Source: Streptomyces africanus
GTDB lineage: Bacteria > Actinomycetota > Actinomycetes > Streptomycetales > Streptomycetaceae
Direction: 5' to 3'
Assembly (NCBI RefSeq): GCF_002150735.1
Contig: NZ_MUKA01000054.1
Span: 1 to 64,000, forward strand
DNA length: 64,000 bases
The notes under the pieces are model-generated. The model was not told where the DNA came from. It did not search any database and worked only from the letters and a program-made list of their open reading frames with translations. The translations under genes were made by a program, and so were the position numbers. Numbering within the stretch: position 1 is the stretch's first letter; each line of letters opens with the position of its first letter. Positions 7,452 to 24,616 of the stretch are shown here, piece after piece.

Positions 7452-7593
7452 CTGCGCGTGGGCGCCCTCCCGAATCCCCCTCGAACGCCCGGTCGATCAG
7501 GAGGCTAGCGAAAATTCCCGGGTGCCGCCGGTGCCCGCTCTGTACGGTGGGGCGTATCCGCAGTTCAGACCACTGATCAAAGGTCGACCCACC

Positions 7594-9057: not shown

Positions 9058-11594
9058 CCGACGTACGCGAGGGGCGGGTCCTGCCCGTCACCGACCTCTC
9101 CCTGGTGGTGCTCGTCGGCGCCTCCGGCTCCGGCAAGTCCACGTTCGCGCGCAGGCACTTCAAGCCGACCGAGATCATCTCGTCGGACTTCTGCCGCGGT
9201 CTCGTCTCGGACGACGAGAACGACCAGAGCGCCACCAAGGACGCCTTCGATGTCCTGCACTACATCGCGGGCAAGCGCCTCGCGGCCGGCCGCCGCACCG
9301 TCGTGGACGCGACCAGCGTGCAGTCCGACGCCCGCCGTCAGCTCGTCGAGCTGGCCAGACGGTACGACGTGCTGCCGATCGCCATCGTGCTCGACGTGCC
9401 CGAGGAGGTGTGCGCCGAGCGCAACGCGGCCCGCACCGACCGCGCGGACATGCCCCGCAGGGTCATCCAGCGCCACACCCGCGAACTGCGCCGCTCCCTC
9501 AGGCACCTGGAGCGCGAGGGCTTCCGCAAGGTGCACGTCCTGCGCGGCGTGGAGGACGTCGAGACCGCCACCGTCGTCACCGAGAAGCGCTTCAACGACC
9601 TGACCCACCTCACCGGCCCCTTCGACATCATCGGCGACATCCACGGCTGCTCCGCCGAACTGGAGTCGCTGCTCGGCAAGCTGGGCTACACCGACGGCGT
9701 CCACCCCGAGGGCCGGACCGCCGTCTTCGTCGGCGACCTGGTCGACCGGGGCCCCGACAGCCCGGGCGTCCTGCGCCGCGTGATGGCCATGGTGAAGTCG
9801 GGCAACGCCCTGTGCGTGCCGGGCAACCACGAGAACAAGTACGGGCGGTACCTCAAGGGCCGCAAGGTCCAGCACACCCATGGCCTCGCCGAGACCATCG
9901 AGCAGATGGCGGGCGAGAGCGAGGAGTTCGCCGCCGAGGTACGGCAGTTCATCGACGGCCTCGTCAGCCACTACGTCCTCGACGGCGGCCGCCTGGTCGT
10001 CTGCCACGCCGGGCTGCCCGAGAGGTACCACGGCCGCACCTCCGGCCGGGTCCGCAGCCACGCCCTGTACGGCGACACGACCGGGGAGACCGACGAGTTC
10101 GGCCTGCCGGTGCGCTACCCGTGGGCGGAGGAGTACCGGGGCCGGGCGGCCGTCGTCTACGGCCACACCCCGGTCCCGGAGGCCACCTGGCTCAACAACA
10201 CCATCTGCCTGGACACCGGCGCCGTCTTCGGCGGCAAGCTCACCGCGCTGCGCTGGCCGGAGCGCGAGCTGGTCGACGTCCCCGCCGAGCGGGTCTGGTA
10301 CGAGCCGGCGAGGCCGCTGCGCTCCGAGGCCCCCGGCGGGCAGGACGGCCGCCCGCTGGACCTGGCGGACGTGCGGGGCCGGCGGGTCGTGGAGACCCGG
10401 CACCAGGGCCGGATCTCGATCCGCGAGGAGAACGCGGCGGCGGCCCTGGAGGTCATGAGCCGCTTCGCGGTGGACCCGCGGCTGCTGCCGTACCTCCCGC
10501 CGACGATGGCCCCGACCGCGACCTCAAACGTCGAGGGCTACCTGGAGCACCCGGCGGAGGCCTTCGCGCAGTACGCGGCGGACGGTGTCGCCCGGGTCGT
10601 GTGCGAGGAGAAGCACATGGGATCCAGGGCGGTCGCCCTGGTGTGCCGTGACGCGGAGACGGCCCGCAAGCGCTTCGGCGTCGACGGCCCCACGGGTTCC
10701 CTCTACACCCGCACCGGCCGCCCGTTCCTCGACGACGACGCCCTCACCGAGGAGATCCTCGGCCGAGTGCGCACGGCGATCGGCGAGGCCGGGCTCTGGG
10801 ACCAGTTGGAGACGGACTGGCTGCTGCTGGACGCCGAGCTGATGCCCTGGTCGCTGAAGGCGTCCGGGCTGCTGCGGTCGCAGTACGCCGCCGTGGGCGC
10901 CGCGTCCGGCGCGGTGCTCCCCGGCGCGCTGGCCGCACTGGAGGGAGCGGCGGCACGGGGCGTCGACGTGACCGGGCTGCTGTCCCGCACCCGCGAACGG
11001 TCCGCCGACGCGGCCGCGTTCACCGAGGCGTACCGCCGCTACTGCTGGACCACGGACGGCCTGGACGGCGTCCGCCTGGCACCGTTCCAGATCCTCGCGG
11101 TCCAGGGCCGCAGCCTCGCCGGACTGCCGCACGACGAGCAGCTCGCCCTGCTCGACCGGCTCGTCGAGCACGACGGCAGCGGCCTGCTCCAGACCACCCG
11201 GCGGCTCTACGTCGACACCGCCGACCCGCAGTCCGTGCGGGCCGGTGTCGACTGGTGGCTGGAGATGACCGGCCGCGGCGGCGAGGGCATGGTCGTCAAG
11301 CCCGTCGGCGCACTCGTGCGGGACAACCAGGGCCGCCTGGTGCAGCCCGGCATCAAGTGCCGGGGCCGCGAGTACCTGCGGATCATCTACGGCCCCGAGT
11401 ACACGCGCCCGGAGAACCTGGCCCGCCTGCGCTCGCGGTTCCTCAACCACAAGCGGTCCCTGGCGATCCGCGAGTACGCGCTCGGCCTGGAGGCCCTGGA
11501 CCGGCTGGCCGGGGGCGAGCCGCTGTGGCGGGTGCACGAGGCGGTGTTCGGGGTGCTGGCGCTGGAGTCGGAGCCGGTGGACCCGAGGCTGTGA
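9054..11594 (+). CDS. pnkp: Polynucleotide kinase-phosphatase-ligase Pnkp
   Basis: An 846-residue three-domain RNA end-healing and sealing enzyme. An N-terminal kinase domain carries GASGSGKST at residues 22-30. A central metallophosphoesterase has GDIHGC, GDLVDRGPDS and GNHENK. A C-terminal adenylyltransferase has the nucleotidyl lysine in EEKHMGSRAV. It forms the sealing complex with Hen1, whose gene it overlaps by four bases. Known substrates of such complexes are tRNAs or other RNAs cut by ribotoxins. The domain order and length are complete and no key motif is missing. Confidence 0.95.
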   Translation: MTDVREGRVLPVTDLSLVVLVGASGSGKSTFARRHFKPTEIISSDFCRGLVSDDENDQSATKDAFDVLHYIAGKRLAAGRRTVVDATSVQSDARRQLVELARRYDVLPIAIVLDVPEEVCAERNAARTDRADMPRRVIQRHTRELRRSLRHLEREGFRKVHVLRGVEDVETATVVTEKRFNDLTHLTGPFDIIGDIHGCSAELESLLGKLGYTDGVHPEGRTAVFVGDLVDRGPDSPGVLRRVMAMVKSGNALCVPGNHENKYGRYLKGRKVQHTHGLAETIEQMAGESEEFAAEVRQFIDGLVSHYVLDGGRLVVCHAGLPERYHGRTSGRVRSHALYGDTTGETDEFGLPVRYPWAEEYRGRAAVVYGHTPVPEATWLNNTICLDTGAVFGGKLTALRWPERELVDVPAERVWYEPARPLRSEAPGGQDGRPLDLADVRGRRVVETRHQGRISIREENAAAALEVMSRFAVDPRLLPYLPPTMAPTATSNVEGYLEHPAEAFAQYAADGVARVVCEEKHMGSRAVALVCRDAETARKRFGVDGPTGSLYTRTGRPFLDDDALTEEILGRVRTAIGEAGLWDQLETDWLLLDAELMPWSLKASGLLRSQYAAVGAASGAVLPGALAALEGAAARGVDVTGLLSRTRERSADAAAFTEAYRRYCWTTDGLDGVRLAPFQILAVQGRSLAGLPHDEQLALLDRLVEHDGSGLLQTTRRLYVDTADPQSVRAGVDWWLEMTGRGGEGMVVKPVGALVRDNQGRLVQPGIKCRGREYLRIIYGPEYTRPENLARLRSRFLNHKRSLAIREYALGLEALDRLAGGEPLWRVHEAVFGVLALESEPVDPRL

Positions 11595-11747: not shown

Positions 11748-13265
11748 GTGCGGACAGGTGCGGCCGCCGGCGATCCCGGTGGCGACGGCGGGCATCAGCC
11801 GCCCTTCGAGCTGCTGTTACAGCTCACCGAAGTCCTCAGCGAGCTGGGCTGCGTGGAGGACGCGCCGAGCCGGGTGCAGTTCGCCGGCCTGCTGGGAGGC
11901 CAGCTCGGCCGGCAGGTGGACATCCGCGGCGTCAGGCTCCGTGAGGACGTCGTGACTCTGGTGACCGCCGCGCTGAGTGTGGCGGGCGGGGAACACGTAC
12001 TGGTCGGCGTGGTCCGCATCCTCGAAGGCGCCCCGGCCGGAGACGAACTCGCACGGCTGATCGCCCCCGCCCCCGCCCTGCCCGGACCGCTGTCCAAGGA
12101 GGACGAGAAGAGCGCCCGCGTCGCGCTCACCCGCGGCGACCTGCCCGCCGCACGGTTACGGGACGGTCTGGCCGAGGAACTCGTCGGCGTCGACCTCCCC
12201 GACGGGCTCACCCCCGAACAGCTCTTCGCGCACCTTCTCGAATGGAACGCACAGGACGACGGCCTGCCGCCCGCCGTCGTCCTCCTCGATCACGCGGCCC
12301 GTCTCGCCCGGACCCTCGACCACCGCCTCGCGCTGACCGCCTGGGTCGAGGACTGGGCCGGACGCGAGGGCCTGACCGCCGAACTGGCCGGACGCCGGGA
12401 GAGACGTGCCGAGGTGGTGTGGTCGCCCGACATCCCGCGCACCCTCGTCGTCGCCGTCGAACCGGCCCGGGACGGCAGCACGGACGTGGTCGTGCGGACC
12501 TGGACCAACGCGACCCCGGGCCGGTGGGACCCACGCCCCGGGGAGCCCGACACGATCCCCCTGGACGGCCTCGGCGAAGCGGTGGACGAGGCGCTCCGGA
12601 GCGGCACCCGGCTCTGGCTGGTGCCCCGCGAACCGGACCGGAGCGGACTCCAGGAGCCGCCTGCGTACATAGAGTTCATCCTTCCGTACGACCTGCTGAA
12701 CCACGATGTGGCGGGGTTGACGTTCGCCATCGGCGACGGTCAGCCCACTCCGCTCGGCCTGCGGTACGGGGTCCATCTACGCAGTCTCGAACGCATGCGT
12801 ACGGACAACGCCGTGGTCCGGCAGCAGTGGAAGCGGCGTTGGGCGGCTCTGAAGCAGCACGGGATCACGGTGCACGCCTGGAGACAAGCGGACGCCCGGC
12901 GGCTGCGCGCGTGGCAGATCGCGCTCGCCGGGGAATCGAGAAGTACGGCAGTGCTGTTGGACGCGCCGACCGGGGCGCCGGCCCGGGAGGCACTCAAAGC
13001 GGCGATCGCGGAGGGGATCGGGCTGGCTGTCTGGGACCGCAGAGGTGTGTTCATAGAGGAACGGCGCGAAGTGGTGACCGCGGTCTTCGCGGCCGTCACG
13101 ATGCCCGTGCAGCTTCCTTCCGTCATTCACCGCATGCGCAGGAACGCCGAGAGTGGCGCGGAGAACGCTGTCCAGTACCTGGCCCGGAACGTCGGATTCC
13201 TGTGGGACGACCCCACCCGAGTCGTCGACATCCAGGCCACCGACCCCGGCGATCTCGCCAGCTGA
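11748..13265 (+). CDS. VMAP-like protein with N-terminal effector-associated domain (EAD2)
   Basis: A 505-residue protein. Residues ~15-110 look like effector-associated domain 2, a small helical adaptor that pairs with the same domain on an effector. The rest, including the C-terminal motif VLLDAPTGAP and a late IGLAVWDRRG segment, resembles VMAP (vWA-MoxR-associated protein), the third partner of MoxR/vWA ternary conflict systems. The next genes supply a MoxR ATPase and a vWA-like domain, which supports the call. GTG 11748 is preceded by AGGGGGAAA. It is the first gene of a same-strand run. Molecular role (sensing or linking to an effector) is inferred from the family. Confidence 0.75.
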   Translation: MRTGAAAGDPGGDGGHQPPFELLLQLTEVLSELGCVEDAPSRVQFAGLLGGQLGRQVDIRGVRLREDVVTLVTAALSVAGGEHVLVGVVRILEGAPAGDELARLIAPAPALPGPLSKEDEKSARVALTRGDLPAARLRDGLAEELVGVDLPDGLTPEQLFAHLLEWNAQDDGLPPAVVLLDHAARLARTLDHRLALTAWVEDWAGREGLTAELAGRRERRAEVVWSPDIPRTLVVAVEPARDGSTDVVVRTWTNATPGRWDPRPGEPDTIPLDGLGEAVDEALRSGTRLWLVPREPDRSGLQEPPAYIEFILPYDLLNHDVAGLTFAIGDGQPTPLGLRYGVHLRSLERMRTDNAVVRQQWKRRWAALKQHGITVHAWRQADARRLRAWQIALAGESRSTAVLLDAPTGAPAREALKAAIAEGIGLAVWDRRGVFIEERREVVTAVFAAVTMPVQLPSVIHRMRRNAESGAENAVQYLARNVGFLWDDPTRVVDIQATDPGDLAS

Positions 13266-13281: not shown

Positions 13282-14373
13282 ATGAGCGCACAGGAACGGA
13301 CGGCAGCGGAGGACTGGCGGGTGTTCCACGCCACCGGGGGCCCGCGCGACGCCCCGCCCGTGCTGCCGGACCCGCCGCCCTGGCGGAGGTTCCGAGGCGG
13401 CCCGGTCGAGACCCCGCCCCCGGACGACGCCGAGGCCGAGCTGCGCCGCCTGGGGTCCGGCGGTCTCACACCCCAGCTCGACGAGGAGCAGATAGACACG
13501 GTCAACGCCGCCCTGCTGCTGCGCCGCCCGCTGCTGATCACCGGCCCTCCCGGCGTCGGCAAGTCGACGCTCGCCTACCTGATCTCGCGTGAGCTGGGGC
13601 TCGGCCGGGTGCTGGAATGGAACATCGTGAGCCGGACCAGCCTGCGTGACGGCTTGTACGTCCACGACGCCATGGGCCGTGCCCAGGCCATCGCCGCCTG
13701 GCAGGCGGGCCTGCGCGACGCGGACCGGACGCAGCCGGTGTTCGAAGACGGCGAACAGACCGTCAACCACACGACGCCGTCAAAAGATCGTCAACTTGCG
13801 CCGGTTATAGGCGAGTTCATTACACTGGGGCCCCTGGGAACCGCCTTGCTGCCCTACGAACGGCCCCGGGTGCTTCTCGTCGACGAACTCGACAAGAGCG
13901 ACATCGACCTGCCGAACGACCTGTTGCACGTTCTGGAGAATGGAAGTTATGAGGTTCCGGAGCTGGTGCGCGACGCCGCCGACACCGCGAGCGTGCACAC
14001 CAGCGACCCGGGGGGCCGGGCCGTGGTGCGCGGCGGGCGGGTCGAGTGCCGGGAGTTCCCGGTCGTGGTGATCACCAGCAACGGGGAGCGGGAATTCCCC
14101 GCCGCCTTCCGCCGCCGCTGTCTGCCGATGGAGATGCACACACCCACCCGGGAGCAACTACTGGCCATGGTGGAAGGGCACTTGGGACTCAGGCCGCGAG
14201 GCACCGAAGACCTCGTCGACCTGTTCGTTCAGCGGATCCAGGCGGGTGGTGTCCACTCCCTCGACCAGTTGCTCAACGCTGTCCAGATGACTACCGCGGG
14301 TGGTTTTCAGGCGGACGGTGACGGGCGTAAGCTCGTCGAAATGCTGCTCCGCGACCTCGCGAAGGGCCGCTGA
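13282..14373 (+). CDS. MoxR-type AAA+ ATPase
   Basis: A 363-residue AAA+ ATPase. Walker A is LITGPPGVGKST, Walker B is RVLLVDELDKSD, and sensor 1 is VVVITSNGEREFP, with an arginine-finger region AAFRRRCLP. This is the MoxR/AAA_5 layout. MoxR ATPases remodel partner proteins, usually with a vWA partner. Here it lies between the VMAP-like protein and a vWA-containing giant protein. GGAGG lies about 7 nt upstream of ATG 13282. The stop overlaps the next start (TGATG), so it is translationally coupled to the FxsT-like gene. Confidence 0.9.
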   Translation: MSAQERTAAEDWRVFHATGGPRDAPPVLPDPPPWRRFRGGPVETPPPDDAEAELRRLGSGGLTPQLDEEQIDTVNAALLLRRPLLITGPPGVGKSTLAYLISRELGLGRVLEWNIVSRTSLRDGLYVHDAMGRAQAIAAWQAGLRDADRTQPVFEDGEQTVNHTTPSKDRQLAPVIGEFITLGPLGTALLPYERPRVLLVDELDKSDIDLPNDLLHVLENGSYEVPELVRDAADTASVHTSDPGGRAVVRGGRVECREFPVVVITSNGEREFPAAFRRRCLPMEMHTPTREQLLAMVEGHLGLRPRGTEDLVDLFVQRIQAGGVHSLDQLLNAVQMTTAGGFQADGDGRKLVEMLLRDLAKGR

Positions 14374-17300
14374 TGACCCGGGAGCGCGCATCCGGACCGG
14401 GCGACGGGGATCCCGCATCGGGATCGTCGCCGCCTCCTTCGGTGTCCCCCGAGCCGCTCGCGCGTGCGAGCGAGCGCGGAGACCGGGTCGCCGCTCCCGA
14501 TCACTTCGTCCCGCGCTGGCAGGAGTTCGCCGACGCGGTGTGGCTCGCCGCGCACTGGAGCCGGTACGCAGGTCCCGGCAGCGCGCCTCCGGAGGCGCCG
14601 GCCCAGGCGGCAGAGGACGCGAGCCCACAGGGCGCAATCCCGCAGGACGCACTCCCGCAGGAAACCGACGCCGACGCCGGACGACCGGACCGGCCACCGG
14701 CGGACGACGACGCACTCCCCGGTCTGCCCGCGGCCGGCGACGCCCTCCCTCCCCAGCCGCCACCCACGAGCCACGCCCCCGACGCGCCGGTCCCTTCCGC
14801 CGACCGGACCGTCGCCCGGGCCGTGAGCCGCTTGTTACCCCACCCCGAAGGCCGCTTCACCCTGCGCCTCGGGCCGCCGCTGCTGCCCCAGGCCGGACCC
14901 GACCCGTCCGGCCCCGGCCGCGTCACGGCCCTGCTCGCACGCGCCCTGCACCAGCTGGCCCGCCGCATCCCCTCCCGCGACAGGCTGGAGCTGGACGAGG
15001 AGACCACCGCCGAACAGGGCCTCGTCGACGGGCTGTGGATGCCGTTTCTGCGGCCCGCCCGGGTCTCCGCCTTCGACCTGGTGCTGCTGCTCGACGACGC
15101 GCCCACGATGCGGATCTGGGAGGAGAGCGCCGCGCGCCTGGCCCACGCTGCCGAGCACAGCGGTGCCTTCCGGAGCGTGCGCACCCTCCGGGTGAACGTG
15201 CCGCGCACCGGTACCGCCACCCTGCGCTGGTCCACGGGACGGGCCGTCACCGACCCCGCCGAACTGCTCGACGGCCGGGGCAGCCGGATCTTCCTCGTCG
15301 TCACCGACGGACTCGCCCACGGCTGGGCCGCCACCGCCGCCGACCAGCTCCTCGGCCGCCTCGCCCACGCCGGCCCCACCGCCCTCGTCCATCTGCTGCC
15401 GCCGCATCTGCGCCACCGCTCCTCGCTCTACCCGTACCCGGCCGTCCTGGAGGCCGGCGGGTTCGGAGCCCCCAACGGCAGCCTCGGGCACTGGGCGCCG
15501 CCCGGCGGCCCCGACCCCATGCGGCCCCTGCCCGAAGCGGGCGACGGCTCCGTCGCCGTCCCGGTGCTCTCCCTGAAGCCCGCCTCCCTCGCCGCCTGGT
15601 CCGATCTGGTCACCGGTGGGCGCGGCGTGCGCCGTTCACTGCCCGTGGTGCTGGCGGGCGCCCTGAGCAAGGGCGCGCCCGCTCCCGGGCTGCGCGCCCC
15701 GCGCCTCCCGCGCGCCGCCACGGCCGCCGTACGGCGCTTCTTCAGCCTGGCCACCCCCTCCGCCCGCCGGCTCGCCACCCAACTCGCCGCCGTGCCCTTC
15801 GACTTCGACCTCGTCGAGCAGCTGCGGCGCCGCGTCATGCCGGAGGCCGGCCCCGACCACCTCGCCGAGATCCTGATGGGCGGGCTGATCGACTGGGAGG
15901 GCGGAGAGGAGGGGCGCCCCGAGTTCGCCGAGGGCGTCCGGGAGGCGCTGCTCGCGACCACCACGCGCAGCCAACTCGCCCAGACGGTCAGCGTGGTGGG
16001 CGAGCTGCCCGCCGCGGGGGAGCGGGGCGTCGCCCTGCGCGCCGCCCTGCACGACCCGCAGCGGACCCGGCTGCCCGACCCCGCCGACCGCGGCTGGGCG
16101 CGCAGCGAACTGGCCGTGATGCGAGCCCTGTCGGGGCCCTACTCCGAGCGGGCCCGGCGCATCGAACCGAATCTGTCCCGGAACCCGCCCGCCGCCGCGG
16201 CGGAACAGGTGGAGAACAGCGCGTCCGCCCATCCACCCCCACAGGTGAATAATCCGGACGAAGCGACTCCATCCAGCCCAACCGACATCAACCCGGAATC
16301 GGCTCAGTCCGATCCGACCGGAGAATCCGCGCCGTCCGAGACGGCCGGCGCCCACCCACAACAGACCCCGGAGGCAGAGCCGCTCATGCAGCGCACCACG
16401 ACCGCAACGCCGGCCCTACTGGTGAACGTGCCCATGCGCAACACCTCGTTCGTCGGCCGTCAGGCGCTGCTGAGGGCCGTGGAGGAGCAGCTCGCCGCCC
16501 AGGACACCGCGGCCGTGCTGCCCAACGCCCTGCACGGCCTCGGCGGCGTCGGCAAGTCCCAGCTGGCGCTGGAGTACATCTACACCCACCAGCGCGACTA
16601 CCGGATCATCTGCTGGATCCCCGCCGAGCGCGAGAGCCTCATCCTGGCGGCGCTGTCCTCCCTCGCCTCCCAGCTGGGCGTCGCCCCGGCCGGTCAGGAC
16701 AGCCTGGGCGCCGCCGCGGCCAACACCGCCGTGCCCGCCGTCCTGGAGGCGCTGCGCACGGGGACGCCGTACGACAACTGGCTGCTGGTCTTCGACAACG
16801 CCGAGGACATCGAGGCGGTGCGCGGCTACTTCCCGCACAACGGGCCGGGCAAGGTCATCGTCACCTCCCGGAACCGGGGCTGGGAACGGGTGGCCACCTC
16901 GCTGCCGGTGAACGTCTTCGAGCGCGACGAGTCCATCGAACTGCTCCAGAAGCGCGCCAAGGACCTGCCCCGGGACGACGCCGACCGGCTCGCCGAGGCG
17001 CTCGGTGACCTGCCGCTCGCCGTGGAGCAGGCGGGCGCCTGGCTCGGGGTGACCGGCATGGAGGTCGACGAGTACCTCGAACTGCTCGCCCAGCGCAGCC
17101 CGGAGATCCTGGAGATCGAGCAGAGCCCCGACTACCCGGTCTCCGTCGCCGCCGCCTGGGACATCTCCCTGGAGCGCATCAGGGAGAACAATCCGGGCGC
17201 CCGCCAGCTCCTCGACATCTGCGCCAGCATGGCTCCCGAGCCGATCCCGAGGTCGATCCTGCGCAGCAGCCGGGGCGTCAACATCACGCCCGAGATCGAC

Positions 17301-18908
17301 CCGATGCTGCGCGAGCCGATCAAACTGAACCGCGCCATCCGCGACCTCAGCCAGTTCTCCCTGCTCAGGGTCGACTCTCGCGCGGGCACCCTGCAGATGC
17401 ACCGCCTGCTCCAGACCGTGCTCCTCGCCAAGCTGAGCGAAGAGGAACGCGAGAGGATGCGGGACGCCGCCCACCAACTGCTGTCCGCCGCCAACCGGGG
17501 CCCCTACGGATCCTCCCAGGAGTGGCGCGACTACCAGGCGCTGCTGCCCCACGTCCTCGCCTCCCAGGCCGTGACCAGCACCGACCCCTATGTGCGCGAC
17601 CTGGTCTACGACACGATGTGGTTCCTCTACTACTGGGGCGACCACGAGGGCGCCGCGGCCTTCGGCCGGCAGGCGTGGAGCGCCTGGCTCGCCGCCTCGG
17701 GCGAGGAGGACATCTATGTCATCCGCATGACCAAGGGCTTCGCGTTCCTGCTGCGCCAGGTGGGTCAGATCGCCGAGTCGATCCCGCTCACCGAGAAGGC
17801 GCTGGAGGTCTCCCGCCGCGTGCAGGTCGAGACGGAGGAACTGATCGACTCCCTGTGCGAGATGTCCGACGCCCACCGGTACCAGGGCCGGTTCCAGGAA
17901 GCGCGGGACCTAGGCAAGGAGGCCACCGAGCTGGGCCGTTCCCTGTTCGGCCCCGAGGATCCGGCCACGTTGCGGGGCAGCCACAGCTGGGGCGTCGACC
18001 TGAGACTGTGCGGGGAGTTCAGGGAGGCGCTGCCACTGGACGAGGAGACCGCCCGCCAGCGCGACATGCTGCTCGGCGAATCCAGCTTCTTCACGCTCAA
18101 CACCCTGCACTGTGTCGCCATCGACATGCGTGAGGCGGGCCAGTACCCCAAGGCGCGCGAATGGCAGGAGGACGTCTTCCGCAGGGCGTTCACCGCGCTC
18201 GGCGAGAAGCACCCCCTGACCCTGCGTATCGCCCGCGACCTCGCGGTTTGCCGCCGCCGGGACGGAGACCTCGCCGAGGGCGCCAAGCTCGCCGAGGAGA
18301 CCCTGCTCAACTTCAAGTCCCGCTACGGCGACGAGCACCTCGACTCGCTGACCACGGCGACCAACGTCTGTGTCGACCGCCGTCTGTCCGGGGACCTGGA
18401 GGGTTCCCGGCGCCTCGCGGAGTCCACCGTGGCCAGGCTGGTGCGGCGCCTCGGACCGGACCACGCGCACACGCTGGCGGCCAGGGCGAACCAGGCCGCC
18501 ACCGAGCGGGCCCTGGGCGCCCTGGACACCGCGCAGGAACTGGAGGACGACGTCGAGCGCCGGCTCGGTGACACGGTCGGGGCGCACCACGTCATCACCC
18601 TCACCGTCGGCATCGGCCGGGCCAACACCGCGTACGCCCGGCTCGACTTCGAGCGGGCGCACGCCATCGACTCCGCCAACCTGCCGCTGCTGGAGGAGGT
18701 GGCGGGCGGGGACCATCCGCTCACCCTCTCCTGCACCTCCAACCTCGCCCTCGATCTGCGGGGCCTCGGACGGGCCGACGAGGCGGACGTGCTCCAGCGC
18801 AAGGCCGTGGAGGGCCTCGCCGCGGTGCTGCGCAACGACCACCCCTGGCTCCAGGCCGCCCGCCAGCGCCGCCGCATCGAGTGCGACATCGCGCCCATGC
18901 CCATGTGA
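14373..18908 (+). CDS. fxsT: FxsT-like protein: vWA-like, NB-ARC NTPase and TPR repeats
   Basis: A 1511-residue multidomain protein of the FxSxx-COOH-system TPR family. A low-complexity Pro/Ala N-terminus is followed (~220-370) by a SAV_2336-like, vWA-like domain with a degenerate MIDAS (LVLLLDDAPTM). After a Pro/Ser-rich linker comes an NB-ARC STAND NTPase from ~residue 680, with Walker A HGLGGVGKSQLA near 720 and NWLLVFDNAED as Walker B. From ~1050 to the end are tandem tetratricopeptide repeats (for example RYQGRFQEARDLGKEATELG). STAND proteins of this type act as sensors or scaffolds that assemble when triggered. Coupling to MoxR and proximity to VMAP and caspase genes suggest it is the regulatory core. 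Confidence 0.85.
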   Translation: MTRERASGPGDGDPASGSSPPPSVSPEPLARASERGDRVAAPDHFVPRWQEFADAVWLAAHWSRYAGPGSAPPEAPAQAAEDASPQGAIPQDALPQETDADAGRPDRPPADDDALPGLPAAGDALPPQPPPTSHAPDAPVPSADRTVARAVSRLLPHPEGRFTLRLGPPLLPQAGPDPSGPGRVTALLARALHQLARRIPSRDRLELDEETTAEQGLVDGLWMPFLRPARVSAFDLVLLLDDAPTMRIWEESAARLAHAAEHSGAFRSVRTLRVNVPRTGTATLRWSTGRAVTDPAELLDGRGSRIFLVVTDGLAHGWAATAADQLLGRLAHAGPTALVHLLPPHLRHRSSLYPYPAVLEAGGFGAPNGSLGHWAPPGGPDPMRPLPEAGDGSVAVPVLSLKPASLAAWSDLVTGGRGVRRSLPVVLAGALSKGAPAPGLRAPRLPRAATAAVRRFFSLATPSARRLATQLAAVPFDFDLVEQLRRRVMPEAGPDHLAEILMGGLIDWEGGEEGRPEFAEGVREALLATTTRSQLAQTVSVVGELPAAGERGVALRAALHDPQRTRLPDPADRGWARSELAVMRALSGPYSERARRIEPNLSRNPPAAAAEQVENSASAHPPPQVNNPDEATPSSPTDINPESAQSDPTGESAPSETAGAHPQQTPEAEPLMQRTTTATPALLVNVPMRNTSFVGRQALLRAVEEQLAAQDTAAVLPNALHGLGGVGKSQLALEYIYTHQRDYRIICWIPAERESLILAALSSLASQLGVAPAGQDSLGAAAANTAVPAVLEALRTGTPYDNWLLVFDNAEDIEAVRGYFPHNGPGKVIVTSRNRGWERVATSLPVNVFERDESIELLQKRAKDLPRDDADRLAEALGDLPLAVEQAGAWLGVTGMEVDEYLELLAQRSPEILEIEQSPDYPVSVAAAWDISLERIRENNPGARQLLDICASMAPEPIPRSILRSSRGVNITPEIDPMLREPIKLNRAIRDLSQFSLLRVDSRAGTLQMHRLLQTVLLAKLSEEERERMRDAAHQLLSAANRGPYGSSQEWRDYQALLPHVLASQAVTSTDPYVRDLVYDTMWFLYYWGDHEGAAAFGRQAWSAWLAASGEEDIYVIRMTKGFAFLLRQVGQIAESIPLTEKALEVSRRVQVETEELIDSLCEMSDAHRYQGRFQEARDLGKEATELGRSLFGPEDPATLRGSHSWGVDLRLCGEFREALPLDEETARQRDMLLGESSFFTLNTLHCVAIDMREAGQYPKAREWQEDVFRRAFTALGEKHPLTLRIARDLAVCRRRDGDLAEGAKLAEETLLNFKSRYGDEHLDSLTTATNVCVDRRLSGDLEGSRRLAESTVARLVRRLGPDHAHTLAARANQAATERALGALDTAQELEDDVERRLGDTVGAHHVITLTVGIGRANTAYARLDFERAHAIDSANLPLLEEVAGGDHPLTLSCTSNLALDLRGLGRADEADVLQRKAVEGLAAVLRNDHPWLQAARQRRRIECDIAPMPM

Positions 18909-18947: not shown

Positions 18948-20042
18948 ATGACGGCGGTGGTCTTCGTTCATGGGACCGGGGTTCGTGAACCGGGCCTGGC
19001 CGCGCTGGTGGGGCGGGTGACGGCCGGACTGGCCGCCCAGCGTGCGGGGGTGCGCATCGTGTCCTACGACTGGGGAGCGGCACACGGTGCCAGACTCATG
19101 GCCGGCGGGGCGAGCCTGCCGCCCCGGTCCGGTACGACGCGCGGTCCCGCCGACGGCCCGGGGGCGGACCCGGGCGACGAAGCGGCCGCGGCCTGGGCCG
19201 CTCTCTACGCCGACCCGTACGCCGAACTGGCCCTGGCCGCCGCCCGGTCCGGTCCGGCCGCCGAACGCCCGCCCGGCTCCATACCGCCGGAGCAGCGCAT
19301 ACGGGCGCAGCTCACCGCACTCGCCGCCGGAGGCGACGCACCAGGAGCCGAGGTGGGCCCCGGGCTGGCCCGCGCCGCCACCGACCTGACCGCCCGCCTC
19401 ATCGCCGACGCCCTCGACGCCGACTCCCCGCTGGTGCCGGTCGGTGAGACACGGGACGCCGTCACCGACCGGATCGCCGAGGCCCTCGGGGCACCGCCCC
19501 GGGGCACGGAACGGGGCCTGCGCTCCTACCTGCTGCGGTCGGCCGGAGCCATGGCCGCGCGGGCCGTGGAACGCCGTCGAAGGGCCCTCACCGAGGCCGC
19601 CCACCCCGCCGCCGGTGACATCCTGCGCTATCTGAGCCGGGGCGCGGCCTTCCGCGACGGCCTGCGCGCCCTCGTCGCCGGCCTGGAGCCGCCCGTCGCC
19701 CTGGTCGGCCACAGTCTCGGCGGCATCATCGCCCTCGACACGCTGATCTCCGCCCCGCTGCCGCAGGTCGGGCTCCTGGTGACGGCCGGCTCCCAGGGGC
19801 CCTTCCTCTACGAGTCGGGCTGCCTGCCGACCCTCGAACACCCCGCGCCCCTGCCGTCGTACGTCCCCGCCTGGCTGAACCTCTACGACCCGCGCGATCT
19901 GCTCGGCTATCTCGGGGCGGAACTCTTCCCGGGCCGCGTCAGAGATGTCGCCGTCGACAGCGGCCAGCCGTTCCCCGCCGCGCACAGCGCCTACTGGACG
20001 AACCCCGCCGTGTACCGCCACATCGTGGACCGCCTGCCGTGA
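18948..20042 (+). CDS. Alpha/beta-hydrolase, lipase-like, of the conflict locus
   Basis: A 364-residue hydrolase. It opens with VVFVHGTGVREPG (oxyanion-hole strand) and carries the nucleophile elbow LVGHSLGGIIALD near residue 255. A late His (DVAVDSGQPFPAAHSAYW) could complete the triad. No signal peptide is seen, so it is probably cytoplasmic. Its stop overlaps the caspase-like gene start by GTGA, indicating a coupled pair. In such loci hydrolases can be effectors acting on lipids or small molecules; that role is inferred. Start ATG 18948 follows a G-rich stretch. Confidence 0.8.
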   Translation: MTAVVFVHGTGVREPGLAALVGRVTAGLAAQRAGVRIVSYDWGAAHGARLMAGGASLPPRSGTTRGPADGPGADPGDEAAAAWAALYADPYAELALAAARSGPAAERPPGSIPPEQRIRAQLTALAAGGDAPGAEVGPGLARAATDLTARLIADALDADSPLVPVGETRDAVTDRIAEALGAPPRGTERGLRSYLLRSAGAMAARAVERRRRALTEAAHPAAGDILRYLSRGAAFRDGLRALVAGLEPPVALVGHSLGGIIALDTLISAPLPQVGLLVTAGSQGPFLYESGCLPTLEHPAPLPSYVPAWLNLYDPRDLLGYLGAELFPGRVRDVAVDSGQPFPAAHSAYWTNPAVYRHIVDRLP

Positions 20043-21166
20043 CCGGGCCCATGCCGTCCGTCGACCCCACCCGGGTGCACGCCCTCGTCGTCGGGATCGA
20101 GGCGTACGAGGCCGGGGACGCCTGGCGGCTGCCCGGGCCCGCGCGGGACGCCGTACGGTTCTGGCGGCTGCTGCGGGACGCCGGGGTCCCCGAGTCCCAA
20201 CTGCGGCTGCACCTGAGCCCGTTGTCCCCCTACGACCCGCACGTCCCCTACGGGCGCGCGGACCAGGCGACCTTGCGCCGGGTCCTCGTGCGTGAACTGT
20301 CCCCGCAGCAGGGCGACCTGCTGTGGGTGTGGTGGGGCGGGCACGGTGTGCTGGACCGGGCCGGGCGGCTCCGGCTGTTCTGCGCGGACGCGGGTGCCGC
20401 CGACAAGGTGGGCATCGACCTGGACAGCGCGCTCGCCCGGTACGCGGGCGACGCCGTGCCGGGGCTGCGTGAGCAGATGTGGATCGTGGACGCCTGCGAG
20501 ACCTTCGAGCAGGACCTGGCCTTCCAGGAGGCGCTGCCCGCCGACGCCCTGCCGGTGGGCCGGCCCAACCACGCGCACCGGCAGACCGTGCTGCGCGCGG
20601 CCGGCCGGGGCAGGGTCGCGGCCAACGACCCCGTCCGTGCCACCGGCCTGTTCTCCGACGTCCTGCTGGGTCTGCTGGCCGACCGGGCGGCCGTTCTGCC
20701 CGCACCGCCCGATCCGGAGGAACTGTTTCCGGCCGTTCGAGCGCGCATCGCGGCCCTCAGGGAAGAGGGCCGTACTCTTCAGCATCCCGAGATCCGGCTC
20801 CAGGGACCCGACCGCACCGAGACCCTGCCCCCCGCGGGACCGCCCGCCGGCTCGCGCCCCCTCGCGGCCTTGCAGCGTGCGGTGGAGGCCCTCCTCGCGT
20901 ACTCCCTCATGCACGACCCCGACGAGCGACAGACGGTCGTCGCCGCGCTGAACCCGCGTGTCACAGCCGTACTGCGCCGTCACAGCAGGGCGCGCACCGA
21001 CGTCGTCAACATCCTCGGCGGGCTCGCCCGGCGGAATCCGGAGGCACTGTGGGACCTGTTCGACGCCGTGGTGTCCGTCGACGACGACCCGGAACTGAAG
21101 GACGAACTGGGCGCGGCACTGACCGAGTTGGTGGCCTCCTCGGCGCGCCGGCGTGATCGGGAGTGA
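20039..21166 (+). CDS. Caspase-like protease with C-terminal effector-associated domain
   Basis: A 375-residue caspase/peptidase C14-fold protein. The first strand is VHALVVGIEAYEAG. The catalytic dyad is His102 in WVWWGGHGVLD and Cys153 in MWIVDACETFE. Residues ~285-370 form a second domain (RRHSRARTDVVNILGGLARRN) with the EAD2 pattern, the same kind of adaptor as at the N-terminus of the VMAP-like protein. A VMAP-recruited protease effector is therefore likely. GTG 20039 overlaps the preceding stop. The proteolytic target is unknown; the nearby precursor peptide or FxsT are candidates only. Confidence 0.85.
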   Translation: MTGPMPSVDPTRVHALVVGIEAYEAGDAWRLPGPARDAVRFWRLLRDAGVPESQLRLHLSPLSPYDPHVPYGRADQATLRRVLVRELSPQQGDLLWVWWGGHGVLDRAGRLRLFCADAGAADKVGIDLDSALARYAGDAVPGLREQMWIVDACETFEQDLAFQEALPADALPVGRPNHAHRQTVLRAAGRGRVAANDPVRATGLFSDVLLGLLADRAAVLPAPPDPEELFPAVRARIAALREEGRTLQHPEIRLQGPDRTETLPPAGPPAGSRPLAALQRAVEALLAYSLMHDPDERQTVVAALNPRVTAVLRRHSRARTDVVNILGGLARRNPEALWDLFDAVVSVDDDPELKDELGAALTELVASSARRRDRE

Positions 21167-21263
21167 TCAGTGGCGTGATCGTACGGTTTTCGCTCCGTGA
21201 GGTATTGGCCATGATGGAAAGACACGGGGCATCGAGTGCCACCGTGCGAGAAGGGGGAGCATC

Positions 21264-21503
21264 TTGGTCCAGCCGCCCGCTCTGCACCACGCCGGAGCCG
21301 CCGCCGCACCTGAACCGGTCGTCGCCACACAGGGGACCGATGTCTGGGAATCCGATCTGGCGGACCTCGCGGCGCTGCCCCTGAGCGCCGTGGACGGTCT
21401 CCCCGCCCTGCCTTCCACCACGCGCCTGCTGACCGAGGTGCTGCGCGCCCGTAGCAGCATGCGGAGCGGCGAAGGAGGAGGCCAGGGCGCCCGAGCCGAC
21501 TAG
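21264..21503 (+). CDS. FxSxx-like RiPP precursor peptide
   Basis: A 79-residue peptide read from TTG 21264, chosen because AAGGGGGAG stands about 5 nt upstream and no better start fits. A variable N-terminus is followed by the leader-like core SDLADLAALPLSAVDGLP and LLTEVLRARSS, closely resembling the conserved segment of FxSxx-COOH precursor peptides. The C-terminus (SSMRSGEGGGQGARAD) lacks the canonical Phe-x-Ser-x-x end, so any modified core would differ. The gene sits between the caspase-like gene and an HExxH peptide hydroxylase. Assignment as a ribosomally made, modified peptide is inferred from this context. Confidence 0.65.
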   Translation: MVQPPALHHAGAAAAPEPVVATQGTDVWESDLADLAALPLSAVDGLPALPSTTRLLTEVLRARSSMRSGEGGGQGARAD

Positions 21504-21528
21504 CCGTCGACCGCGTTCCGACGGCAGT

Positions 21529-21561
21529 ACCCCGGTGCGACACCCGCACGCGCACCGGGGT
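21529..21561. terminator. Hairpin between precursor and hydroxylase genes
   Basis: ACCCCGGTGCG at 21529-21539 pairs perfectly with CGCACCGGGGT at 21551-21561 (11 bp, 11-nt loop). It lies 26 nt after the precursor stop and 39 nt before the hydroxylase start. Partial termination or RNA stabilisation here would favour precursor mRNA over enzyme mRNA, a common arrangement in RiPP clusters. Confidence 0.6.
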
Positions 21562-21599
21562 CCCCGCATGTCCGCCAACCCGTCCGGAGGTCCGCGACG

Positions 21600-23294
21600 A
21601 TGACCAGCGAGCAGCACCTCGCTCCCTTCCGCATGCCGGACCGGCTCTTCGCGGAGTTGGCCGCCGGAGGTGGTTCGGCAGCGGCCGTCGCCTTCCTCGA
21701 ACGAGCAGAACGCGCGCGGCGGTTGCTGCTCCTGCGCACCCTCCTCGGTCACCTCGACGCCCTGCCCACCCCCCTCACCCCGGTCGCCGAAGCCTGGCGG
21801 GTGCTCAAGGATGCGGCCGAGAAGGCGCCCGAGCCGGTCGAACGCCTGCTGCTGGCCCCGGCGACCGGCGGCTGGATCTCCCACATGCTGCGCCGGGTGC
21901 ACGGAACGGCGAGCGGACCGCCCCTGTGGGCGGAGGCGGGTCACCTCAGCGCACTGGCCCTCTCGGCCTCCTTGCACGCGGGCACCGAGACGGCCCTCGA
22001 CGTTCCCCTCACCAGCGGGCGGTTGCCCCTGCCCGGTCTCGGCATGATCCAACTGCCCGACGCGCAGGAGGGCCTGGCGGTCGGCCGGGTCACCACGGCC
22101 GGGGGAGAGGTGACGGTCACCGGGCCGGGGCACCCGACCGGCTCGGTGCGGGTGACCTGCCGTCCGTTGACGCGGTGTGCCGACGCCGAACGGGGCACCT
22201 GGCTCCCGCTGCGCACCCTCACCCACACCGGCCCCGACGGCAGAGCCCCCGTCACCGTCGTCCTCGACGACCTCGACCCCTACCGCGATCTCGACGACCA
22301 CCTGCCCCCCGCCCGGCTCGACGAGGACGAGGCACAGGAGTGGCAGCGGTTGTTCGGGGAGGCCGCGCGGATCCTCGCACGCCCTGGCGTACCGGGCCCC
22401 GGCCGGGTCGACCCCGCCATGATCCGGGCGATCGTGCCCTTCGGACGCACCGCCGCCAGCCCGCCCCCGCCGCCCTTCGTGCAGGTGTCGGCCTCCAGCG
22501 GTGACTCCTTCGGCGGCATGCTCATCGTCCGGCCGGCCTCCGCGCTCGCCCTCGCCGAAACCCTGGTGCACGAGCTCCAGCACAGCAAACTGGCCGCCCT
22601 CCTCCACCTGTTCCCGCTGCTGGAGGACGACCGGGCCGAGCGCTACTACGCCCCCTGGCGCACCGACCCGCGCCATCTCACCGGCCTGCTGCACGGCGCC
22701 TACGCCTTCACCGGCGTCGCGGGTTTCTGGCGGGACCGGCTGGCCGGTGCGCAGGAGGGTGAGGCGGTCGAGCGGGCCGCCTACTTCTTCGCGCTGCGCC
22801 GGCTGCAGAGCCGCGTCGCCGTGCGCACCCTGCTGACCAGCGGCCGCCTGACCCCGCAGGGCCGCGCCCTCGTCTCGGGCCTCGCCCGCACCCTCGACGG
22901 CTGGCTGCGCGAACCGGTCCCGTACGCCGCCCTCACCCGTGCCCGTACGGCCGCCGCGCTGCACCGCACCGAGTGGCGGCTGCGCAACGTCGACCCCGCG
23001 GTGGAGATACCGTCGGACGGCCCCCGCTTCCGCCCCGACCGCAGCTCCTGGCCCGACGTGCGCACGCACGCCTTCGCCACCCGCGTCGCCGCCCCGCGCA
23101 CCGGCGACGAGCACCTGGCCGCCGGGGACGCGGCCGCCGCACTCGCCCGGTACGCCGGGCAGCTGGCCGCCGACCCCGCCGAGCCGCACGCCCTGGCCGG
23201 CTGGATCGTCGCCCGGGCCGTGCTCGAACCGGGCCGGGCCACGCGGCGCATGCTGGCCCGGCCGGAGCGGCTCCAGCCGCTGCCCAGCGGCTGA
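21600..23294 (+). CDS. alpha-KG/HExxH-type peptide beta-hydroxylase-like protein
   Basis: A 564-residue protein of the HEXXH-motif peptide-modification family found beside FxSxx-type precursors. The motif reads LVHELQHSKLAALLHL, with His324, Glu325 and His328 as likely metal ligands. Family members studied elsewhere use iron and 2-oxoglutarate to beta-hydroxylate residues of a precursor peptide. The N-terminal third is helical and may bind the leader peptide; the C-terminus ends in a helical repeat-like segment. ATG 21600 follows GGAGGTCCGCG. No radical-SAM FxsB gene, the usual partner, is present here. Substrate assignment to the 79-aa peptide is by proximity. Confidence 0.8.
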   Translation: MTSEQHLAPFRMPDRLFAELAAGGGSAAAVAFLERAERARRLLLLRTLLGHLDALPTPLTPVAEAWRVLKDAAEKAPEPVERLLLAPATGGWISHMLRRVHGTASGPPLWAEAGHLSALALSASLHAGTETALDVPLTSGRLPLPGLGMIQLPDAQEGLAVGRVTTAGGEVTVTGPGHPTGSVRVTCRPLTRCADAERGTWLPLRTLTHTGPDGRAPVTVVLDDLDPYRDLDDHLPPARLDEDEAQEWQRLFGEAARILARPGVPGPGRVDPAMIRAIVPFGRTAASPPPPPFVQVSASSGDSFGGMLIVRPASALALAETLVHELQHSKLAALLHLFPLLEDDRAERYYAPWRTDPRHLTGLLHGAYAFTGVAGFWRDRLAGAQEGEAVERAAYFFALRRLQSRVAVRTLLTSGRLTPQGRALVSGLARTLDGWLREPVPYAALTRARTAAALHRTEWRLRNVDPAVEIPSDGPRFRPDRSSWPDVRTHAFATRVAAPRTGDEHLAAGDAAAALARYAGQLAADPAEPHALAGWIVARAVLEPGRATRRMLARPERLQPLPSG

Positions 23295-23392
23295 CCCGCC
23301 CGGGCTGATTGTCGTCAGGCAGACGCAAACGAGAGTTCGCCGAAACGCGCGAGCAGCGCGTCAACAGGCGCTCCGATGGTCAGGATGGAGAC

Positions 23393-24616
23393 ATGGCTTA
23401 CCACGTCCACTCCGAGGCCGGGCGGCTGCGCCGCGTCATCCTGCACCGGCCCGATCTCGAGCTCAAAAGGCTCACCCCCAGCAACAAGACCTCGCTGCTC
23501 TTCGACGACGTGCTGTGGGTGCGCAGGGCCCGCGCCGAGCACGACGGGTTCGCCGACGTGCTGCGCGACCGGGGCGTCGCCGTCCACCTCTTCGGTGACC
23601 TGCTGGCCGAGACCCTCCAGGTCCCGGCGGCCAGGGTCCTCGTCCTGGACCGGGTCTTCGACGAGAAGGAGTACGGCCCGCTGGCCACCGACCATCTGAG
23701 AGCCGCCTTCGAGAACCTGCCCGGGGCGGAGCTGGCCGAGCTCCTGGTCGGCGGCATGACCAAGCGGGAGTTCCTCGACGTGCACCCGGAGCCGACCTCG
23801 GTGCGCTTCCACGTCATGGAACTGGACGACTTCCTGCTGGACCCCCTGCCCAACCACCTCTTCACCCGCGACACCTCCGCGTGGATCTACGACGGCGTCT
23901 CCATCAACGCGATGCGCTGGCCCGCCCGGCAGCGCGAGACCGTGCACTTCGAGGCGATCTACCGGCACCACCCGCTGTTCCGCGACGAGACCTTCCACCT
24001 CTGGTCCGAGGGACAGGCCGACTACCCGTCCACCATCGAGGGCGGGGACGTGCTCGTCATCGGCAACGGGGCGGTGCTCATCGGCATGAGCGAGCGCACC
24101 ACGCCCCAGGCCGTCGAGATGCTCGCGCACAAGCTGTTCGCCGCCGGTTCCGCCGAGACGATCGTGGCCCTCGACATGCCCAAGCGGCGTGCCTTCATGC
24201 ACCTCGACACCGTGATGACGATGGTCGACGGCGACACCTTCACCCAGTACGCGGGGCTCGGCATGCTCCGCTCGTACACCATCGAACCGGGCGTCGGCGA
24301 GAAGGAGCTCAAGGTCACCGACCATCCGCCGGAGCACATGCACCGCGCGATCGCCGCGGCGCTCGGCCTGAACGAGATCCGGGTGCTGACCGCCACCCAG
24401 GACGTGCACGCGGCCGAACGAGAGCAGTGGGACGACGGCTGCAACGTCCTGGCCGTCGAACCCGGCGTCGTGGTCGCCTACGAGCGGAACGCCACCACCA
24501 ACACCCACCTGCGCAAACAGGGCATCGAAGTGATAGAGATCCCGGGCAGCGAGCTGGGGCGGGGCAGGGGCGGGCCGCGCTGCATGAGCTGCCCGGTCGA
24601 ACGGGAGGCCGTTTAA
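23393..24616 (+). CDS. arcA: Arginine deiminase
   Basis: A 407-residue enzyme hydrolysing L-arginine to citrulline and ammonia. Visible motifs are [39 protein letters not shown] (catalytic His and Asp) and the C-terminal GGPRCMSCP with nucleophile Cys397. The length is normal for the family. ATG 23393 follows GGATGGAG. The adjacent ornithine carbamoyltransferase gene would convert citrulline onward, but carbamate kinase is absent from this window, so a full ATP-yielding deiminase pathway is not shown. Confidence 0.96.

What the first reader, a model, noticed from the sequence alone, without database searches (positions are those of the whole stretch)
21264..23294. Short precursor peptide paired with an HExxH peptide hydroxylase but no radical SAM enzyme
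The 79-aa peptide has the leader-like segment of FxSxx precursors, but its C-terminus ends in a Gly/Ser/Arg-rich stretch instead of Phe-x-Ser-x-x. The only modifying enzyme next to it is the HExxH protein. A product bearing only beta-hydroxylation would be a new class within this group.
Basis: partly seen in the sequence, partly recalled or inferred. Interest (0 to 1): 0.72.

Follow-up and report, generated by a model that had tools for sequence, protein, structure and literature searches.

The report
Conflict-operon peptide with dedicated HExxH enzyme
A small peptide of a Streptomyces-like bacterium, with a strongly conserved C-terminal tail, sits beside one iron-type peptide-modifying enzyme at the end of a predicted anti-invader gene set; the arrangement was described before, but the tail resembles that of a peptide whose related enzyme cuts the backbone and leaves an amide, which gives a testable idea of what this enzyme does.

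Summary
In detail: a 79-codon TTG-start peptide gene (21264-21503) directly precedes an HExxH enzyme gene (21600-23294), and no radical SAM domain was found on the contig. FxSxx leader kinship is not supported. The pair closes a VMAP-type conflict operon: VMAP(EAD2), MoxR, SAV_2336/NB-ARC/TPR, hydrolase, caspase-EAD2, peptide, HExxH. A 2020 eLife paper (PMC7159879) already describes 'RxD-type' peptide-processing systems for which no radical SAM is listed, taking the enzyme for a metallopeptidase. So the proposed new class is in print as an arrangement. What my searches did not find in print is the link to chemistry: PosC/PflC, distant relatives, hydroxylate side chains and cut oxidatively before the Ala of C-terminal A-R-M-D, leaving an amide. 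The window peptide ends A-R-A-D. I favour oxidation at Ala/Gly(-4) with loss of the last four residues and amidation, over plain beta-hydroxylation (nearly as likely) or hydrolysis. The reaction is untested; mass spectrometry would separate the outcomes: -414.19, +15.99 or -413.20 Da.

The parts
11748..13265 (+). VMAP protein: EAD2 + VMAP-M0 + VMAP-C
   Evidence: Pfam PF19956, PF19916, PF20028, all above gathering score
13282..14373 (+). MoxR-like AAA+ ATPase (start estimated by eye; the open frame begins at 13153)
   Evidence: PF00004 and PF07728 above gathering score; conserved with the operon. MoxR identity rests on position and on the paper's description, no MoxR model was passed
14373..18908 (+). 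SAV_2336 N-terminal domain (inferred vWA component) + NB-ARC + TPR; FxSxx_TPR family
   Evidence: NF041121 389.9 bits, NF040586 780.6 bits, NB-ARC 33.0 bits (cut-off 23.5), TPR_12 114.3 bits
18948..20042 (+). alpha/beta-hydrolase-like protein (GHSLGG seen by eye)
   Evidence: only Pfam hits below cut-off; conserved with the operon
20039..21166 (+). caspase-like protein with C-terminal EAD2
   Evidence: PF19956 39.1 bits (cut-off 23.8); NF047832 38.3 bits, below its cut-off of 140
21164..21259 (+). non-coding element before the peptide, conserved in most orthologues: TGATC-N7-TGATC, CATGATGGA, GGCATCGAGTGCC, then RBS AAGGGGGAG
   Evidence: 36 orthologous upstream regions, of which L123, L128, L131 and L142 depart clearly; 22-base core occurs once in the own genome with up to 3 mismatches
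21264..21503 (+). precursor-like peptide, TTG start, C-terminus A-R-A-D
21600..23294 (+). HExxH enzyme of the aKG-HExxH peptide hydroxylase family (HELQH at residues 324-328, APWRTDPRHLTGLLHG)

Best explanation
This is the peptide-modification module of a VMAP ternary conflict system, of the RxD type. The N-terminal two thirds of the peptide (ESDLxDL...RLLxExxRxR) serve as leader. The HExxH protein, an Fe(II)/alpha-ketoglutarate enzyme of the ChlH/PosC/PflC family, binds the leader and oxidises the C-terminal tail. The favoured outcome is hydroxylation of the alpha carbon of the Ala or Gly at position -4, loss of the last four residues ([AG]RA[DE]) as an oxo-acyl tripeptide, and a C-terminal amide on the rest. 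The mature peptide then acts as signal or effector for the NB-ARC/TPR and caspase proteins of the operon. Shown: gene order, conservation, enzyme family, intact HExxH, no radical SAM on the contig. Inferred: leader role, enzyme chemistry and site, and the role of the product.
For: 48 of 50 distinct orthologues end [AG]RA[DE]; -4 is A or G in 48 of 50 while -5 is A or G in 16 of 50. Several synonymous codons are used at the conserved Arg and Ala/Gly, so selection is on the protein. PosC/PflC cut before the Ala of C-terminal ARMD; the A-to-G variant is partly cut; Q, S and V variants are oxidised without cutting (PMC12636437). PesO hydroxylates the Pro before a C-terminal R(V/T)DN (PMC13060819, passages). 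HExxH is intact, and His365 of LLHG, which aligns with His in ChlH and in PosC-like proteins, is kept in 34 of 34 distinct sequences scoring 290 bits or more. Family; homology to PDB 22nu over residues 12-440 and to ChlH 8s5f over 315-429. Operon context.
Against: PosC-like enzymes are distant (at best 31.4 bits, 24-26% identity) and their precursors have a different leader. In PosC the R, M and D of ARMD are each dispensable, so a conserved R-A-[DE] may mean something else. A Gly-rich tail makes A/G at -4 only moderately telling. At more divergent HExxH loci -4 can be S, K, Q, M or R, and of 24 leader-motif peptides there 8 end R-x-[DE]; one of the 8 (L133) is in fact of the window type, leaving 7 of 23. 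Two of the 50 orthologues lack the motif (ends SQAH and DDRM). The profile that collected most orthologues included the C-terminus. His365 is Gln in 38 of 55 mid-range homologues, so it is not a family-wide active-site residue. The structure model was too poor to use (mean pLDDT 43.6).
Confidence: 0.42

Rival explanations
1. The HExxH enzyme only beta-hydroxylates a side chain in the C-terminal tail (Arg -3, the acidic C-terminal residue, or a residue further in) and the tail stays on: the first reader's proposal.
For: The family is named for beta-hydroxylation. ChlH acts on Asp/His (as told in PMC12636437) and PesO on Pro. -3 is R in 48 of 50 and -1 is E/D in 48 of 50; the odd orthologue L044 ends in His, also a ChlH-type target.
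Against: Does not explain why -4 is limited to A/G in the window group, the two residues at which PosC was seen to cut.
Confidence: 0.33
2. The HExxH protein is a zincin-like metallopeptidase that hydrolyses the precursor and releases a small C-terminal peptide as toxin or signal, as the 2020 eLife paper proposed.
For: Section 24 of PMC7159879. PflC hydrolyses ARMD off truncated, leaderless substrates.
Against: The members whose chemistry I saw described (ChlH, PosC/PflC, PesO) are oxygenases on their natural substrates; PflC did not hydrolyse full-length substrate without oxygen. The 2020 proposal predates these papers.
Confidence: 0.1
3. No covalent modification: the peptide is a small regulatory or adaptor subunit bound by an HExxH protein, or its C-terminal motif docks to another operon protein.
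For: No modification has been shown; a conserved C-terminal R-A-[DE]-COOH could be a docking tail.
Against: HE..H is present in 130 of 131 homologous frames (the one without is a 270-residue fragment, and some genes appear twice, cut differently), and the two genes stay paired (61 of 62).
Confidence: 0.1
4. A radical SAM enzyme encoded elsewhere also acts on the peptide.
For: 16 radical SAM domains exist in the own genome.
Against: None on this contig and no FxsB above cut-off; the tail lacks the FxSxx motif.
Confidence: 0.05

Closest known systems
RxD-type peptide-processing system of VMAP ternary conflict systems (eLife 2020, PMC7159879; author name Kaur et al. recalled)
   Same: VMAP and MoxR-like genes, NB-ARC/TPR fused to the presumed vWA part, zincin-like HExxH gene, small protein with conserved R-x-acidic C-terminus, no radical SAM found
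   Different: Here -1 is mostly Glu (35 of 50) and the motif is four residues, [AG]RA[DE]; the enzyme belongs to a family since reported as alpha-ketoglutarate oxygenases; a conserved non-coding element precedes the peptide in most orthologues. The paper's own alignment of RxD peptides is in its source data, which I did not see
PflC/PosC with PflA/PosA, Pseudomonas (PMC12636437)
   Same: Stand-alone HExxH enzyme; substrate C-terminus A-R-x-D; shared HExxH, PW....R and H[GA] residues
   Different: Distant sequence, nitrile-hydratase-type leader, Gln-rich core, MNIO-nitroreductase partner in the cluster (as told in the paper)
FxsA/FxsB(H) FxSxx cyclophane peptides
   Same: FxSxx_TPR-family protein in the window operon; small precursor next to an enzyme whose C-terminal half is related to the window enzyme
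   Different: Radical SAM present and no HE..H in 8 of 8 loci, peptide ends FxSxx; window-type profile does not match these peptides
ChlH (PDB 8s5f) and PDB 22nu/22ob
   Same: HExxH motif and homology by sequence
   Different: ChlH acts on a preformed cyclophane (as told in PMC12636437); the function and title of 22nu I do not know
PesO of nitrilobacillin clusters (PMC13060819, passages)
   Same: HExxH enzyme acting just before a C-terminal R-x-D motif
   Different: Target is Pro; further enzymes (MNIO, nitrile synthetase) act on the same peptide; sequence kinship of PesO not tested here

Membership tests
RxD-type VMAP peptide-processing system | VMAP and MoxR genes in order | tested here: met
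   VMAP by Pfam; AAA+ ATPase by Pfam, MoxR identity by position
RxD-type VMAP peptide-processing system | vWA protein fused to AP-ATPase and TPRs | tested here: inconclusive
   NB-ARC and TPR met; the N-terminal part matches SAV_2336_NTERM but no vWA model was listed; vWA identity is inferred
RxD-type VMAP peptide-processing system | small protein with C-terminal RxD motif | tested here: met
   window ends R-A-D; R-x-[DE] in 48 of 50 orthologues, but 35 of 50 end in E, so the orthologue group as a whole is R-A-[DE]
RxD-type VMAP peptide-processing system | zincin-like HExxH gene, no radical SAM gene beside it | tested here: met
aKG-HExxH peptide hydroxylase (TIGR04267) | family model passed and HExxH intact | tested here: met
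aKG-HExxH peptide hydroxylase (TIGR04267) | Fe(II)/alpha-ketoglutarate-dependent oxidation of a peptide | not testable with these tools
   needs an enzyme assay
FxSxx (FxsA/FxsB) | C-terminal FxSxx and TIGR04268 match | tested here: not met
   control (one of two FxSxx peptides passes the cut-off)
FxSxx (FxsA/FxsB) | FxsB radical SAM gene | tested here: not met
PflC/PosC-type oxidative amidation | substrate C-terminus with Ala/Gly before R-x-acidic | tested here: met
PflC/PosC-type oxidative amidation | backbone cleavage with C-terminal amide | not testable with these tools
   needs mass spectrometry
PflC/PosC-type oxidative amidation | close sequence kinship to PosC | tested here: not met
   24-26% identity, at best 31.4 bits
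PflC/PosC-type oxidative amidation | MNIO-nitroreductase partner in the cluster | not tested
   no model search for MNIO or nitroreductase was made; none of the operon proteins scanned gave such a hit

The most novel reading that the evidence does not exclude
A predicted bacterial immune/cell-death operon arms a peptide signal by oxidative C-terminal amidation: the HExxH enzyme hydroxylates Ala/Gly(-4), sheds the conserved [AG]RA[DE] tail and leaves an amide that the NB-ARC/TPR or caspase partner reads, so that RxD-type conflict peptides and Pseudomonas ARMD peptides share one chemistry.
Probability: 0.3. Interest if true: 0.75.

Novelty: new member of a known kind. Interest (0 to 1): 0.5.

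Why it matters
In 2020 the peptide module of VMAP conflict systems was read as a peptidase plus a toxin or signal; my paper searches turned up no experimental test of it. Tying its conserved tail to a characterised enzyme family gives one cheap experiment (co-express two genes, weigh the peptide) that tells hydroxylation, oxidative amidation and hydrolysis apart. If amidation is found, it would be a chemical switch inside a bacterial NLR/caspase-type system.

Tried and rejected
FxSxx leader kinship was tested and not supported. A radical SAM partner on the contig was sought and not found. The idea that R-x-[DE] is universal for this enzyme family was rejected (8 of 24, or 7 of 23 without L133; other ends include GAGC, SCVS, SFTV). 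Pro as the general target (PesO-like) was set aside for the window, which has no Pro in its last 19 residues. A sigma-70/terminator scan of 20900-23450 gave nothing. The single-sequence AlphaFold model was too poor to use, and no fold search was run. The second HExxH gene of the genome (C292, L061) showed no convincing precursor among frames passing my filters between 6.5 and 14.5 kb of that stretch. Papers seen: PMC12636437, parts 1-3 of 6 of the whole text plus passages; PMC7159879, section 24, part 1 of section 9, and passages; PMC13060819, PMC12257519 and PMC8195603, passages only; all others as search listings. The link between VMAP/RxD systems and alpha-ketoglutarate HExxH enzymes was not seen in any listing or passage; listings are capped, subscription papers are mostly not held, and supplements could not be read.

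Rows dropped or kept apart: peptides of 45 bits or less (14 distinct) are not in the 50 counted; 9 of these 14 end R-x-[DE]. The first count used a 55-bit bar: 35 of 37. One strong orthologue (L153) was left out because no start codon was picked. For L044 the start is uncertain (I began it at a Leu codon; one search chose GTG for the same gene, L142), and I wrote Met for every start, so the 'invariant' first column of alignment A1 means nothing.

Full report
What is there. The finding's coordinates are right: a 79-aa TTG-start ORF with a strong ribosome-binding site, then 96 bases, then a 564-aa ORF with HELQH. The enzyme scores 169.8 bits against NCBIfam TIGR04267 (aKG-HExxH-type peptide beta-hydroxylase, cut-off 40) and 98.8 bits, below the cut-off of 225, against the inactivated C-terminal half of FxsBH. 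By sequence it resembles PDB 22nu over residues 12-440 (E 1.5e-35) and ChlH, 8s5f, over 315-429 (E 4.7e-10).

Is the peptide real? Starting from the enzyme, 108 of 150 genomes of the genus have some match at E 0.001. I took 34 stretches around matches. Among the 15 loci with the closest enzymes the peptide is found in 14; in the fifteenth (L033) the contig ends there. All seven operon genes lie in one stretch in the same order in 9 of the 15 (L032, L034, L038-L043, L045). In L035 and L037 the hydrolase and caspase genes follow the HExxH gene, in L035 after a second TPR gene; L036 shows neither in its stretch; the contig of L044 starts inside the TPR gene and shows no hydrolase match; L053 shows part of the caspase, the peptide and a split enzyme match. 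A profile of 15 peptides then matched 51 of 392 genomes of the genus and 28 of 197 genomes of the order (one lies outside the genus, and the two samples overlap). Of 50 distinct peptides above 45 bits, the window's own included, 48 end [AG]-R-A-[DE]; by position: -1 E35 D13 H1 M1; -2 A49 R1; -3 R48 Q1 D1; -4 A28 G20 S1 D1; -5 P20 G15 S6 T4 N3 A1 Q1. As background, 44 of 7235 stop-to-stop frames of 45 or more residues in the 34 stretches end R-x-[DE], and 14 of these end [AG]RA[DE], 13 of which are the orthologues themselves (with the peptides). Several codons are used for the conserved residues. The conserved parts are ESDLxDL, RLLxExxRxR and the C-terminus. An HExxH frame follows in 61 of 62 loci with enough downstream sequence.

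Caveats on that count. The profile used to collect the orthologues included the C-terminus. A test that picks peptides by a leader motif next to more divergent HExxH genes gives 8 of 24 ending R-x-[DE], or 7 of 23 after dropping L133, which is of the window type. So the motif recurs beyond the window group but is not universal.

Context. The upstream genes are VMAP with EAD2, an AAA+ ATPase that I take for MoxR, a SAV_2336/NB-ARC/TPR protein, a hydrolase-like protein and a caspase-like protein with EAD2. EAD2 occurs in both VMAP and the caspase-like protein, the kind of pairing that PMC7159879 describes for effector-associated domains (passages). Downstream are arginine deiminase and ornithine carbamoyltransferase, which I take to be unrelated. 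Section 24 of that paper describes peptide-processing systems in about 20% of actinobacterial VMAP systems: a zincin-like metallopeptidase and a small protein whose C-terminus is of FxSxx, RxD, acidic or FtsH-associated type; a radical SAM gene is named for the FxSxx and FtsH types, and AP-ATPase/TPR is fused to the vWA protein for the RxD and acidic types. The window fits the RxD type on the features tested; the vWA identity of the SAV_2336 part is inferred. So the arrangement is known.

FxSxx as a control. Eight loci chosen for FxsBH-like matches each have a CxxxCxxC motif in a frame of over 740 residues, no HE..H in it, and an adjacent peptide ending FxSxx. The enzyme of L188, the only one scanned, is FxsB with the inactivated half (591.5 and 436.8 bits, both above cut-off). 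Of two of these peptides scanned, one passes the TIGR04268 cut-off (31.1 of 28) and one does not (21.5). None of 15 window-type peptides matches any NCBIfam model up to E 10, and the FxSxx peptides do not match the window-type profile (best E 64). In these samples the two systems look complementary: the FxSxx type has radical SAM and has lost HExxH; the window type keeps HExxH and has no radical SAM on its contig.

Chemistry. PMC12636437 (parts 1-3 of 6 read) reports that PflC and PosC hydroxylate Gln residues and remove a C-terminal ARMD oxidatively, leaving an amide. Ala to Gly is partly cut; Ala to Gln, Ser or Val is oxidised but not cut; R, M and D are each dispensable. PMC13060819 (passages) reports that PesO hydroxylates a Pro just before a C-terminal R(V/T)DN motif. 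I recovered ARMD peptides from nine Pseudomonas records, and a PosC-like enzyme frame in five of the nine stretches, one of them cut at the end. Four of these align to the window enzyme at 24-26% identity, sharing HExxH, PW....R and H[GA]. The His of LLHG is present in 34 of 34 distinct sequences scoring 290 bits or more, but 38 of 55 mid-range homologues have Gln there. The restriction of -4 to Ala/Gly (48 of 50, against 16 of 50 at -5) is what an enzyme with the PosC rule would need; hence my preference for oxidative amidation. The case is suggestive, not proven, and plain hydroxylation is nearly as likely. The role of the product as a signal for the NB-ARC/caspase parts is inference from gene order.

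Regulation. The roughly 100 bases before the peptide are conserved in most of 36 aligned upstream regions, which include the window's: GGCATC.GTGCC.CCG and CATgATG at or near the 90% level, two TGATC boxes at 70% or more, then the ribosome-binding site; L123, L128, L131 and L142 depart clearly. The start codon picked was TTG in 32 of the 36 and GTG in 4. A 22-base core occurs once in the own genome with up to 3 mismatches. This suggests that peptide and enzyme have their own promoter or operator inside the operon; no sigma-70-type promoter was matched.

Verdict. Real and conserved, a new member of a described kind; the proposed new class is not new as an arrangement, while the reaction remains open and is easy to test.

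Noticed in passing
window 21164-21259: Non-coding element (TGATC repeats, CATGATGGA, GGCATCGNGTGCC) before the peptide, conserved in most of 36 upstream regions, one copy in the genome; looks like a dedicated promoter/operator.
   Followed up: partly
window 7522-11594: Hen1 methyltransferase and Pnkp-type kinase/phosphatase/ligase genes side by side (Pfam Hen1_L 366 bits, PNKP_ligase 581.5 bits): an RNA-repair pair next to the conflict operon.
   Followed up: partly
L187-L194: FxsBH-like frames lack HE..H in 8 of 8 loci and pair with FxSxx peptides, the mirror image of the window type, which keeps HExxH and lacks radical SAM on its contig.
   Followed up: partly
L017, L020, L027, L028, L031: Divergent HExxH genes (194-283 bits) sit by leader-motif peptides with quite different C-termini (GTPE, SCVS, SGGC, GAGC, SASM), so further core types exist.
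   Followed up: no
L035 15903-19899 and L037 17316-19660, coordinates with the HExxH gene turned to +: In these orthologous operons the hydrolase and caspase genes lie after the HExxH gene, in L035 after a second TPR gene: duplication or rearrangement. L036 shows neither gene in its stretch.
   Followed up: no
L044 and L142 (same gene), L150: The two orthologues without the motif end SQAH and DDRM; both keep an HExxH frame (L015 and L150).
   Followed up: no
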